The notes under the pieces are model-generated. The model ran no database searches. It was not told the origin of the DNA and saw only the letters and a program-made list of their open reading frames with translations. From an uncultured Pelagibacteraceae bacterium (GTDB lineage: Bacteria; Pseudomonadota; Alphaproteobacteria; Pelagibacterales; Pelagibacteraceae), in NCBI GenBank assembly GCA_902529715.1, contig CABZXL010000001.1:65162-115694 (forward strand): 50,533 bases of DNA, in the 5' to 3' direction. The translations under genes were made by a program, and so were the position numbers. Shown here piece by piece: positions 7,789 to 11,754 of this stretch (position 1 is the first letter of the stretch; every line of letters starts with the position of its first letter).

Positions 7789-8700
7789 TTAAAAAGCCAA
7801 ATTATAGGCGAAGTTCTTTCCTAAATTTTCTTTTAATGAATTACAAAACTTAGCCGCTTCTGCTCCATCTATAATTCTATGGTCATATGAAAGTGATATT
7901 GGCAATACTGTTCTTGCAAGAAACTTATCCTTAATAAAAATTTGTTTTTTATAGGATCTACCAACACCAAGGATTGCAACTTCAGGATAATTTATTATTG
8001 GTGTAAAATAGGTACCACCAATACCTCCAAGACTTGTTATAGTTATTGACCCTCCAAAAAATTCCTTTTTATTTATTTTTAAATTTTTACTAAGCTCACT
8101 CACATTTTTTAATTCTTCTGCTATTTCTTTTACTTTCATTTGATCTACATTTCTAATTTTTGGAACCATTAAACCGTGAGGAGTATCAACTGCAATACCT
8201 ATATGAAAATATTTTTTTAAAGTAATTTTTCCATCTTTAACATTGTCAATTGAAGAATTAAATGTAGGAAATTTTTTTAAATTATTAGTTAATGCTTTTG
8301 CTATAAATGCAAGAGGTGTAATTTTAATTTTATTTCCAGAAACTGTATCAATTAATTTTGTTCTGAAGTCCTCAAGCTCTGTTATGTCGACTTCATCATG
8401 ATGAGTAACATGTGGAATTGTATTCCAAGAATTTGAAAGATGAGGAGCTGCCAATCTTTTTACTCTAGGCATATCAATTATTTCTATATTTCCAAAATCA
8501 GAATGGTTAAATTCAGATTTAAATTGAGTCTCTACTTTTGCTTGAGATTTATTTAAATTTTTATTTACAAAATTTTTTACGTCTTCCTCAGTTATTCTAC
8601 CTTCTCTTGCAGATCCTTCAATTTCTGAAATATTTGCACCAAGCTCTCTTGCAAATTTTCTTATTTTTGGAGTAGTAAATATTTTTTTATTTTCTGACAT
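7789..8700 (-). CDS. aceF: Pyruvate dehydrogenase E2 (dihydrolipoamide acetyltransferase) lacking a lipoyl domain
   Basis: 303 aa; begins directly with a peripheral-subunit-binding domain (TTPKIRKFARELGANISEIEGSAREGRITEEDV) followed by the catalytic domain with LSYDHRIIDGAEAAKF; no N-terminal DKxx lipoyl domain. Confidence 0.93.
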   Translation of the reverse strand: MSENKKIFTTPKIRKFARELGANISEIEGSAREGRITEEDVKNFVNKNLNKSQAKVETQFKSEFNHSDFGNIEIIDMPRVKRLAAPHLSNSWNTIPHVTHHDEVDITELEDFRTKLIDTVSGNKIKITPLAFIAKALTNNLKKFPTFNSSIDNVKDGKITLKKYFHIGIAVDTPHGLMVPKIRNVDQMKVKEIAEELKNVSELSKNLKINKKEFFGGSITITSLGGIGGTYFTPIINYPEVAILGVGRSYKKQIFIKDKFLARTVLPISLSYDHRIIDGAEAAKFCNSLKENLGKNFAYNLAF

Positions 8701-8703
8701 AAT

Positions 8704-11700
8704 TTAAAGTTTTGTAGGAATTGTTTTATTCGGGTCAATATTATATTTTTTTATGGCTTCGTTAGCATATTTTGATGGTATTAATTGTTCTTTGGCTAAA
8801 ACACTCAGTGAATAAGCTACAATATGCTCTTTATCAACTTCAAAAAACTTTCTTAAATTTTTTCTAGTATCACTTCTTCCATAGCCATCTGTACCAAATG
8901 AGTAAAAACTTTTTTTAGTAAAAGGCCTAATTTGATCTGAATTCAATCTTATGTAGTCTGAAGCTGAAACTATTGGCCCTTCAGTTGAAGAAAGACATTT
9001 TTCTATATGGCTTTTTTTATTTGTTTTATCTGGATTAAGTAAATTATATCTTTCTACCTCTATAGCTTCTTTTCTAAGCTCGTTATAACTTGTAACACTC
9101 CATACATCACTATCTATTTTATAATCTTTTTCTAATATTTCTGCTGCAGCAATAATTTCTCTTAGAATGGTCCCAGATCCTAATAATTGTATTTTAGTTT
9201 TTTTATTTTTATTAAATTCTTTAAATTTATACATACCTTTTAAGATATCTTCCTCTATATTTTTTTCTTTTGGTATTTCAGGATGAGGATAATTTTCATT
9301 CATTGTAGTAATATAATAAAAAATATTTTCTCTCTTTTCATACATTCTTCTTAGACCTTCTCTAAAAATTACAGCTAACTCGTAAGAAAAAGTTGGATCA
9401 TATGAAATACAATTTGGTACTACAGAAGACAATATATGGCTATGTCCATCACCATGTTGAAGACCTTCTCCCGACAGTGTTGTGCGTCCTGCAGTCGCTC
9501 CAATTAAAAATCCTCTTGTTTGATTATCTCCTGCAGCCCAAACAAAGTCGCCAGTTCTTTGAAAGCCAAACATAGAATAAAATATATATATTGGTATCAT
9601 CGAGATATCATGATTTACATATGATGTGCCGGCTGCAATCCAGGATGAAATAGCACCAGCTTCTGTTATTCCTTCTTCTAAAACCTGACCTTTTATATCC
9701 TCACGATAAGAGCTTAATTGTTCTGAGTCAACTGGTTCATATTTTTGACCTTCATGAGCATATATTCCTATTTTTTGAAACAAACCCTCCATACCAAAAG
9801 TTCTAGCTTCATCTGGAATTATTGGAACTAGTCTTGGAGCTACATTTTTATCCCTCATAAGATTTGTCAACATTCTAACTAATACCATTGTTGTAGACAT
9901 TTCTTTTTCTCCTGTAGATTCTTTCATTTTTGCAAATATATCTTTTGGTGGAGTTTTTATAGCTTTAGCAAATGATGACCTTTCTGGTAAGTTTCCACCT
10001 AATTTAATTCTACATTCTTTTAAGTATTTTATTTCTGGTGAATTATCATCGGGTCTATAATATTGAATATTTCTTACTTGCTCATCTGTTAAAGGCACAT
10101 CAAATCTATCTCTATAATACAACAAATCTTCTTCATCTAATTTTTTTTGTTGGTGAGTTGTATTCATACTTTCACCCGACTTGCCCATTCCATAGCCTTT
10201 TATAGTTTTAGCTAGAATTATAGTTGGTGTACCTTTATTCTGCATAGCAGCGTGATAAGCGGCATAAACTTTGTGTGGATCATGTCCACCCCTGTTAAGT
10301 TTCCATATATCTTTATCTGTCATTTGAGAAACCATATCTAAAAGTTCTTTATACTTTCCAAAAAATTTCTCTCTTACATATTTTCCTCCTTTTGCTTTGA
10401 ATGCTTGATATTCTCCATCAACTGCTTCTCCCATTCTTTTAATTAACAATCCAGATTTGTCTTTGGCTAACAATTGGTCCCAGTAAGAACCCCAAATAAC
10501 TTTAATTACATTCCAACCAGCTCCTCGAAATATTCCTTCAAGTTCTTGAATTATTTTTCCATTGCCTCTTACTGGACCATCCAACCTTTGTAGGTTACAA
10601 TTTACTACAAAAATTAAGTTATCTAGTTTTTCTCTAGCTGCTAATCCTATGGCTCCTAAAGATTCTGGTTCGTCAGTTTCGCCATCTCCCAAAAAGCACC
10701 AAATTTTTCTTCCTTCATCTTTTAACAATCCTCTATTGATTAAATATTTATTAAATCTAGCTTGATAGATTGACATTATTGGGCCAAGACCCATTGACAC
10801 TGTAGGAAATTGCCAAAATTTTGGCATTAACCAAGGATGAGGATAGGAAGATAGCCCACCTGGTTTAACTTCTTGTCTAAAACGGTCTAATTCTTTTTCA
10901 TTAATTCTACCTTCAAGAAAAGCTCTTGCATACATTCCAGGTGCACTATGGCCTTGAAAGTAAATTAAATCTCCACCAAATTTATTATTTTTTGCTCTCC
11001 AAAAATGATTCATACCAATATCATATAGAGTAGCAGCTGAGGCAAATGTTCCAATATGACCTCCAAGTTCTGGATTTTTTTTATTTGCTCTAACAACCAT
11101 TGCTGCTGCATTCCATCTAATCAGAGATCTTATTTTTCTTTCTAAATTTTGATCTCCAGGAGATTTTACCTCTTCCTCTGGTTTTATAGTATTAATATAA
11201 GGAGTGTTTCTTGATAATATTAAATCTGAACCTTCCTTATAAGAATGTTCAATAAGTTGCTTAATTAAAAATTGAGCTCTATTTTTTCCATCTTTTTCTA
11301 AAACTGCGGAAAGAGACTCTAGCCATTCTTTTGTTTCTATTGGATCTATATCTCCATCTTTAGAGACTTGAATAATTGATTCATTCTTTTTATCAACTTT
11401 ACTTTTATCAACTTTTTTTTCTTTTTCTAAAGTCTTTTCTGCTTGTTGGATAATTTTTTCTGTATCTACAGGTAATTTATCTTGATTTGATTTTTCTTTT
11501 TCTTCTTTACCTTCAATTTGGTCTCCAGAAACTTCGATAAGCACGTCACCTTTTGAAACTTTATCTCCAATTTTCACATTGATATTTTCAACAACACCTT
11601 CAATTGTAGAAGGAACCTCAACACTAGATTTATCACTTTCAAGAGTTACGATAGAATCGTTTTTTTTTATTTTATCCCCAGATTTTATTAAAATTTCTAT

Positions 11701-11754
11701 AATTTCAACATTCTCAAAATCACCGATATCAGGAACTATTACCTTATTAGACAT
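8704..11754 (-). CDS. aceE: Pyruvate dehydrogenase E1 (homodimeric type) with N-terminal lipoyl domain fusion
   Basis: 1016 aa; residues about 1-78 are a biotinyl/lipoyl domain (VIVPDIGDFENVEIIEILIKSGDKI..LESDKSSVEVPS), then a charged linker, then homodimeric E1 (DPIETKEWLESLSAVLEKDG..GDGETDEPESLGAI). Confidence 0.95.
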   Translation of the reverse strand: MSNKVIVPDIGDFENVEIIEILIKSGDKIKKNDSIVTLESDKSSVEVPSTIEGVVENINVKIGDKVSKGDVLIEVSGDQIEGKEEKEKSNQDKLPVDTEKIIQQAEKTLEKEKKVDKSKVDKKNESIIQVSKDGDIDPIETKEWLESLSAVLEKDGKNRAQFLIKQLIEHSYKEGSDLILSRNTPYINTIKPEEEVKSPGDQNLERKIRSLIRWNAAAMVVRANKKNPELGGHIGTFASAATLYDIGMNHFWRAKNNKFGGDLIYFQGHSAPGMYARAFLEGRINEKELDRFRQEVKPGGLSSYPHPWLMPKFWQFPTVSMGLGPIMSIYQARFNKYLINRGLLKDEGRKIWCFLGDGETDEPESLGAIGLAAREKLDNLIFVVNCNLQRLDGPVRGNGKIIQELEGIFRGAGWNVIKVIWGSYWDQLLAKDKSGLLIKRMGEAVDGEYQAFKAKGGKYVREKFFGKYKELLDMVSQMTDKDIWKLNRGGHDPHKVYAAYHAAMQNKGTPTIILAKTIKGYGMGKSGESMNTTHQQKKLDEEDLLYYRDRFDVPLTDEQVRNIQYYRPDDNSPEIKYLKECRIKLGGNLPERSSFAKAIKTPPKDIFAKMKESTGEKEMSTTMVLVRMLTNLMRDKNVAPRLVPIIPDEARTFGMEGLFQKIGIYAHEGQKYEPVDSEQLSSYREDIKGQVLEEGITEAGAISSWIAAGTSYVNHDISMIPIYIFYSMFGFQRTGDFVWAAGDNQTRGFLIGATAGRTTLSGEGLQHGDGHSHILSSVVPNCISYDPTFSYELAVIFREGLRRMYEKRENIFYYITTMNENYPHPEIPKEKNIEEDILKGMYKFKEFNKNKKTKIQLLGSGTILREIIAAAEILEKDYKIDSDVWSVTSYNELRKEAIEVERYNLLNPDKTNKKSHIEKCLSSTEGPIVSASDYIRLNSDQIRPFTKKSFYSFGTDGYGRSDTRKNLRKFFEVDKEHIVAYSLSVLAKEQLIPSKYANEAIKKYNIDPNKTIPTKL

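What the first reader, a model, noticed from the sequence alone, without database searches (positions are those of the whole stretch)
7789..11754. Pyruvate dehydrogenase with the lipoyl swinging arm moved from E2 to the N-terminus of E1
The AceE ORF starts with a complete lipoyl domain (VIVPDIGDFENVEIIEILIKSGDKIKKNDSIVTLESDKSSVEVPSTIEGVVENINVKIGDKVSKGDVLIEV; predicted lipoylated Lys42), then a charged ~50-residue linker and a full homodimeric E1. The adjacent E2 begins directly with its E1/E3-binding domain and has only the catalytic domain. In canonical PDH the lipoyl domains sit on E2 (or, in some bacteria, an extra one on E3). Here the acyl carrier would be tethered to E1 and must reach E2 and E3 in trans, changing complex architecture and stoichiometry.
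Basis: partly seen in the sequence, partly recalled or inferred. Interest (0 to 1): 0.85.

Follow-up and report, generated by a model that had tools for sequence, protein, structure and literature searches.

The report
Lipoyl arm on E1, not E2
In this marine SAR11 bacterium the swinging lipoyl arm of pyruvate dehydrogenase, a central enzyme of metabolism that normally carries the arm on its E2 core, is found only on the E1 subunit; related SAR11 genomes show that E1 gained an arm once and that E2 then lost its own arm many separate times.

Summary
Confirmed. AceE (8704-11754, minus strand, 1016 aa) is a full lipoyl domain (LD), a 57-residue linker and a complete homodimeric E1p. AceF (7789-8700, 303 aa) is an E1/E3-binding domain plus acetyltransferase, with no LD. 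It is not an artefact: the same architecture recurs in dozens of independent SAR11 assemblies. In five near-complete genomes with this architecture (93-99% complete) the only biotinyl/lipoyl domains are on SucB, the acetyl-CoA carboxylase carrier and AceE; the single lpd has none. The AceE LD is therefore the only candidate swinging arm for PDH.

'Moved' is really 'gained, then lost'. Every intact operon-type AceE examined in this Pelagibacterales family has an N-terminal LD (153 with one, 5 with two), and it was not seen in AceE outside the family. Most relatives also keep the AceF LD. That LD is missing in 26 of 149 genomes typed and was lost at least about 7 times (9-12 in bootstrap trees). 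Basal genera show intermediates: two LDs on AceE, or a dead second AceF LD. The lipoyl lysine is intact in all 163 AceE LDs.

Precedents exist (Zymomonas E1-beta LD; Mycoplasma E3 LD), but I found no homodimeric E1 carrying the sole LD. Lipoylation and catalysis are inferred.

The parts
8704..11754 (-). aceE: lipoyl domain + linker + homodimeric pyruvate dehydrogenase E1 (1016 aa)
11533..11745 (-). lipoyl domain of AceE, residues 4-74
   Evidence: Pfam PF00364, 60.7 bits; matches solved lipoyl domains 1gjx, 1qjo, 7b9k; pN/pS 0.14 in the window clade
11629..11631 (-). codon of Lys42, predicted lipoylation site (ESDKSS)
   Evidence: invariant in the 19-sequence alignment; [ED][STD]DK motif in all 163 AceE LDs examined
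11359..11526 (-). charged linker, residues 77-132, weakly constrained (pN/pS 0.60)
11425..11475 (-). conserved predicted helix in the linker (LPVDTEKIIQQAEKTLE, residues 94-110), function unknown
   Evidence: motif P.[TV]E.[IL]I..AE in 71 AceE loci and in no other ORF of the loci scanned; helix 96-110 in the model
8713..11358 (-). E1p catalytic body of AceE, residues 133-1014
   Evidence: TIGR00759, 1415 bits; aligns to E. coli AceE 1l8a along residues 134-1013
7789..8700 (-). aceF: E2p without lipoyl domain (303 aa)
8575..8682 (-). peripheral subunit-binding (E1/E3-binding) domain of AceF, residues 7-42
   Evidence: Pfam PF02817, 43.4 bits
7822..8484 (-). acetyltransferase catalytic domain of AceF, residues 73-293, with DHRIIDG
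   Evidence: Pfam PF00198, 258 bits

Best explanation
This is a working pyruvate dehydrogenase complex in which the only swinging arm belongs to the homodimeric E1. LipB/LipA would lipoylate Lys42 of the AceE lipoyl domain. The E1 active site reductively acetylates the LD tethered to it by the 57-residue linker. E1 docks on the binding domain of the short AceF, which puts the LD within reach of AceF's catalytic core (acetyl transfer to CoA) and of E3 bound to neighbouring AceF chains (re-oxidation). AceF is reduced to binding site plus acetyltransferase. The arrangement arose in two steps: an LD was added to AceE in the ancestor of this Pelagibacterales family, giving redundant arms, and the AceF LD was then deleted repeatedly while the AceE LD was always kept. 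Shown here: domain content, conservation, the LD census, the pattern of losses. Inferred: lipoylation, docking, catalysis in trans, stoichiometry.
For: Domain scans. In type-A genomes G004, G069, G077, G120 and G162 (93-99% complete) exactly three PF00364 domains exist: SucB, AccB, AceE; the window's own genome adds only one biotin-carrier-like protein. A single lpd of 467-471 aa next to sucB, no room for an LD; lipB present in the window's genome. Lipoyl lysine kept in 163 of 163 AceE LDs, whereas a second AceF LD in basal genera g6/g7 has lost it in all 4 scored. LD under purifying selection (pN/pS 0.14 against 0.60 for the linker). AceF LD lost with at least 7 changes forced by well-supported branches, on both the AceE-core and the AceF-core tree; no intact operon-type AceE without LD seen in the family. 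Losses rather than regains: AceF LDs carry VPNIG in early genera (g5, g6, g7, g9) and in g1, AceE LDs carry [VI]PDIG.
Against: No biochemistry. Lipoylation of AceE and PDH activity without an E2 LD are not demonstrated. The window's own genome is only 72% complete, so the absence of another LD rests on near-complete relatives with the same architecture. SucB's LD could in principle serve PDH. The AlphaFold model was too poor beyond the LD to say how the arm reaches the sites.
Confidence: 0.87

Rival explanations
1. The AceE lipoyl domain is not the working arm. The LD of SucB (E2 of 2-oxoglutarate dehydrogenase) serves PDH in a mixed complex that shares the single E3, and the AceE LD is structural, regulatory or unmodified.
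For: Only one lpd, next to sucB, so E3 is shared; mixed PDH-ODH complexes sharing one E2 are known in Corynebacterium (PMC7568260).
Against: The lipoylation motif is kept in all 163 AceE LDs and the LD is under purifying selection, while truly idle LDs in this family (AceF LD2 of g6/g7) lose the lysine. The AceE LD groups with PDH-type LDs, far from SucB's. From general knowledge, E1p does not readily acetylate E2o lipoyl domains.
Confidence: 0.07
2. The short AceF is the ancestral state in this genus, and relatives with an AceF LD regained it by copying from AceE, so there was one loss and later gains.
For: Several short-AceF lineages branch early in genus g1; the LD tree is poorly resolved and AceE LDs are not one clade in it (p-AU 0.21).
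Against: AceF LDs of g1 carry the AceF-specific VPNIG of genera g5, g6, g7 and g9, not the PDIG of AceE LDs. Short AceF also occurs singly in g8, g9 and g10 and next to long forms (L116 beside L062), with different N-termini.
Confidence: 0.06
3. Assembly or annotation error: the 5' part of aceF was joined to aceE.
For: The window comes from a fragmented genome (51 contigs, 72% complete).
Against: Same intact ORFs in dozens of independent assemblies, including nearly closed genomes; most relatives have LDs on both proteins.
Confidence: 0.005

Closest known systems
Canonical proteobacterial PDH with homodimeric AceE and multi-LD AceF (E. coli)
   Same: Same E1 and E2 families; E2 keeps binding domain and catalytic core; aceE directly followed by aceF.
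   Different: E. coli has three LDs on E2 and none on E1 (PMC8421416); here one on E1 and none on E2.
Zymomonas mobilis PDH with an LD on E1-beta (title of the 1999 FEMS paper listed in PMC7873978)
   Same: An LD on an E1 subunit. NCBIfam PRK11892 (PDH E1-beta) weakly matches the AceE N-terminus.
   Different: That E1 is an alpha2-beta2 enzyme of another type; from my own knowledge, its E2 also keeps an LD.
Mycoplasma hyopneumoniae PDH
   Same: The LD lies on another subunit, PdhD, shown to be lipoylated (PMC7873978). NCBIfam PRK11857, a 308-position E2 model without LD, matches this AceF over its whole length, below its cut-off.
   Different: There the LD is on E3, here on E1.
E3 with N-terminal LD (Neisseria meningitidis, Alcaligenes eutrophus)
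   Same: LD on a peripheral enzyme of the complex (PMC7873978).
   Different: On E3; from my own knowledge, E2 keeps its LDs there.
Corynebacterium OdhA (E2 acyltransferase domain fused to E1o, uses AceF in trans)
   Same: Rearranged domain distribution, with arm and E1 acting in trans (PMC7568260).
   Different: Acyltransferase domain, not LD, fused to E1; the LDs stay on AceF.

Membership tests
Homodimeric pyruvate dehydrogenase E1 (AceE, TIGR00759) | Full-length match above the curated cut-off | tested here: met
   1415 bits against a cut-off of 860, residues 133-1014
Homodimeric pyruvate dehydrogenase E1 (AceE, TIGR00759) | Active-site and ThDP residues of E. coli AceE kept | tested here: met
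   GDGE...NCNLQ, LGGH, the loop His (THQ/AHQ), EEGI.E and the GLQHxDGHSH segment align with 1l8a
Lipoyl domain (PF00364), PDH type | Domain match and DK lipoylation motif | tested here: met
   60.7 bits; ESDKSS, Lys42
Lipoyl domain (PF00364), PDH type | Lipoic acid attached to the lysine | not testable with these tools
   Needs mass spectrometry or blot; lipB is present
Dihydrolipoamide acetyltransferase E2p (AceF) | Binding domain plus acetyltransferase domain with the DHRxxDG motif | tested here: met
   PF02817 and PF00198; DHRIIDG
[quoted passage not shown]
   No LD; the protein starts 6 residues before the binding domain. It scores below the curated cut-offs of the long E2p models TIGR01348 and PRK11854
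PDH with the LD on a peripheral subunit (Mycoplasma hyopneumoniae type) | LD-less E2 and LD on E3 | tested here: not met
   E2 is LD-less, but E3 has no LD (467-471 aa) and the LD is on E1

The most novel reading that the evidence does not exclude
A class of pyruvate dehydrogenase complex in which the only swinging arm is on the homodimeric E1 and E2 is a bare docking and acetyltransferase core, reached many times over by a ratchet: one gain of an LD on E1, then repeated loss of the E2 LD, with none of the reverse loss seen. E1 alone should be able to acetylate itself.
Probability: 0.8. Interest if true: 0.7.

Novelty: new variant of a known kind. Interest (0 to 1): 0.64.

Why it matters
Textbooks place the swinging arm of PDH on the E2 core, which ties arm number and reach to the core. 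Here the arm number is tied to E1, so a binding domain occupied by E3 brings no arm. SAR11 is among the most abundant bacterial groups on Earth, and its genomes form a natural series (two arms on E1; arms on both; dead second arm on E2; none on E2) that makes it testable why E2 needs its arm at all and how active sites are coupled when the arm comes in from outside. Drastically simplified complexes may also be useful for engineering small PDHs.

Tried and rejected
Assembly error: rejected on independent assemblies. Hidden LD elsewhere in the genome: rejected for near-complete type-A genomes. A fifth lipoyl-like protein in type-B G012 is an LD-like + acyltransferase protein of the sugar O-acetyltransferase kind, not a PDH E2. 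Longer AceE linker as compensation for the lost E2 arm: means differ (64 against 58 residues), but independent pairs on the tree show no support. Second, LD-less AceE paralogue only where AceF keeps its LD: nearly so, but G323 appears to have a paralogue with a short AceF, so not a rule (the G323 paralogue is inferred from match scores). LD tree to date the duplication: too short to resolve, AceE LDs as one clade neither supported nor rejected. AlphaFold model of AceE: only LD and linker helix usable (mean pLDDT 47), so no fold search was run. No prior description found in ten full-text searches of open-licence papers; subscription papers are not covered.

Full report
What is there. The window carries, on the minus strand, aceE (8704-11754, 1016 aa) followed 4 bp later by aceF (7789-8700, 303 aa). 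AceE residues 4-74 are a lipoyl domain (PF00364, E 1.2e-16) and residues 133-1014 a complete homodimeric E1p (TIGR00759, 1415 bits). It aligns end to end with E. coli AceE 1l8a with the thiamine-diphosphate and catalytic segments kept. AceF has the E1/E3-binding domain at 7-42 and the acetyltransferase domain at 73-293 with DHRIIDG, and nothing before them.

Is it the only arm? The window's genome (918 kb, 72% complete) has four PF00364 matches: SucB, the BCCP of acetyl-CoA carboxylase, AceE, and a 72-aa carrier protein beside urea-carboxylase/allophanate-hydrolase-like genes. It has two 2-oxoacid acyltransferases, SucB and this AceF. Because the genome is incomplete I examined relatives with the same architecture: G004, G069, G077, G120 and G162 (93-99% complete) have exactly three matches each, on SucB (441-448 aa), AccB (138-145 aa) and AceE (1023-1029 aa). 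The single lpd (467-471 aa) sits beside sucB and has no LD; lipB is present in the window's genome. So in this type of genome the AceE LD is the only PDH-type arm.

How widespread? In a draw of 297 genomes of the order, the listed AceE matches in the window's family (genera g1, g5-g10) run from the start of the LD, and the other family of the order that was sampled has no AceE hit. In local domain scans all 158 LD-bearing AceE of the family have one (153) or two (5) LDs; the only AceE there without an LD are a contig-cut copy and a second paralogue. Outside the family, AceE matches in the class (6 other genomes) and phylum (about 155 genomes) start at query residue 105 or later, and none of the outside loci read in full has an LD on AceE. 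The gene pair also appears in named records of uncultured Pelagibacteraceae.

The relatives show how it arose. Most family members keep an AceF LD as well (AceF ORFs of about 415-455 aa). Among 149 genomes whose AceF could be typed by ORF length, 26 have the short LD-less form; this sample was not random, since it was enriched for genomes with two aceE. On the AceE-core tree (65 rows) the AceF state changes 10 times, at least 7 forced by well-supported branches, bootstrap range 9-11; on the AceF-core tree 11, at least 7, range 10-12. Short forms occur in g1 (many times), g8, g9 and g10, sometimes beside a long-AceF sister (L116 and L062), and their N-termini differ (MSENKKIFTTP, MNQIIHASP, MINRILATP, MNEKKRVPASP, MSKKITKKGSASP), as expected for separate deletions. 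AceF LDs in g1, g5, g6, g7 and g9 carry VPNIG where AceE LDs carry [VI]PDIG, so the AceF LDs of g1 are inherited and the short forms are losses, not the ancestral state. Basal genera show intermediates: g5 and some g7 have two LDs on AceE; g6 and some g7 have a second AceF LD whose lipoyl lysine is gone (TIEDDESS and similar).

Is the AceE LD working? The lipoylation motif is intact in all 163 AceE LDs. pN/pS in the window clade is 0.14 for the LD, 0.60 for the linker, 0.08 for the E1 body. These are the marks of a used domain. I infer that LipB/LipA lipoylate Lys42, that E1 acetylates its own tethered LD, and that docking of E1 on the AceF binding domain brings the acetyl-LD to the AceF core and then to E3 on neighbouring chains. 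In E. coli the binding domain can take E1 or E3 and LDs serve many sites redundantly (PMC8421416), so an arm brought by E1 is mechanistically plausible. None of this is shown biochemically.

Comparison. An LD on an E1 subunit is known for E1-beta of Zymomonas mobilis, LDs on E3 for Neisseria and Alcaligenes, and an LD on E3 for Mycoplasma hyopneumoniae, where lipoylation of PdhD was demonstrated (PMC7873978). SAR11 papers mention aceE copies but, in the passages read, not this architecture (PMC10030771). In ten searches of the open-licence literature I found no account of a homodimeric E1 carrying the sole LD. I therefore call it a new variant of a known kind.

Limits. Completeness of the window's own genome; no modification data; trees of closely related sequences with some weak forks; typing of AceF from ORF length for genomes not read in full; structure model unusable beyond the LD; literature search limited to open-licence papers.

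Noticed in passing
window 11425-11475 (AceE residues 94-110): A conserved amphipathic segment (P.DTE.II.EAE..L) inside the otherwise fast-evolving LD-E1 linker, seen in 71 AceE loci and in no other ORF scanned; weak or absent in g8/g9 and in the two-LD forms. Possible docking helix, unexplained.
   Followed up: partly
L197, L198, L199, L200, L203 (AceF of genera g6, g7): The second lipoyl domain of AceF has lost its lipoyl lysine (EDDE / EDEE in place of SDKS): a dead swinging arm caught in decay.
   Followed up: partly
L146, L147, L197, L201, L202 (AceE of genera g5, g7): AceE with two tandem N-terminal lipoyl domains, both with intact lysine.
   Followed up: partly
L036/L208, L154, L204, L205: A second AceE paralogue (52-55% identical, about 885-900 aa, no LD, no aceF next to it) in some genomes; in L208 it lies beside a histone-deacetylase-like gene and a D-2-hydroxyacid-dehydrogenase-like gene. 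Perhaps an E1 for another 2-oxoacid.
   Followed up: partly
L207:2225-3445 (-), genome G012: A 407-aa protein with an N-terminal lipoyl-like domain, a possible binding-domain-like stretch and a hexapeptide-repeat acyltransferase (NeuD-like).
   Followed up: no
genomes G079, G110, G139, G009, G186, G197, G209, G214 (g1), G205, G228 (g8): Genomes 89-97% complete in which neither AceE nor AceF was found; either true loss of PDH or a shared assembly gap.
   Followed up: no
AceF C-terminus, window 7789-7850: SAR11 AceF ends in NLGKNFAYKLAV-like sequence, two residues longer than the E. coli E2p end (TLSDIRRLVM), in both short and long forms. From my own knowledge this segment helps join E2 trimers into a cube, so core assembly may differ.
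   Followed up: no
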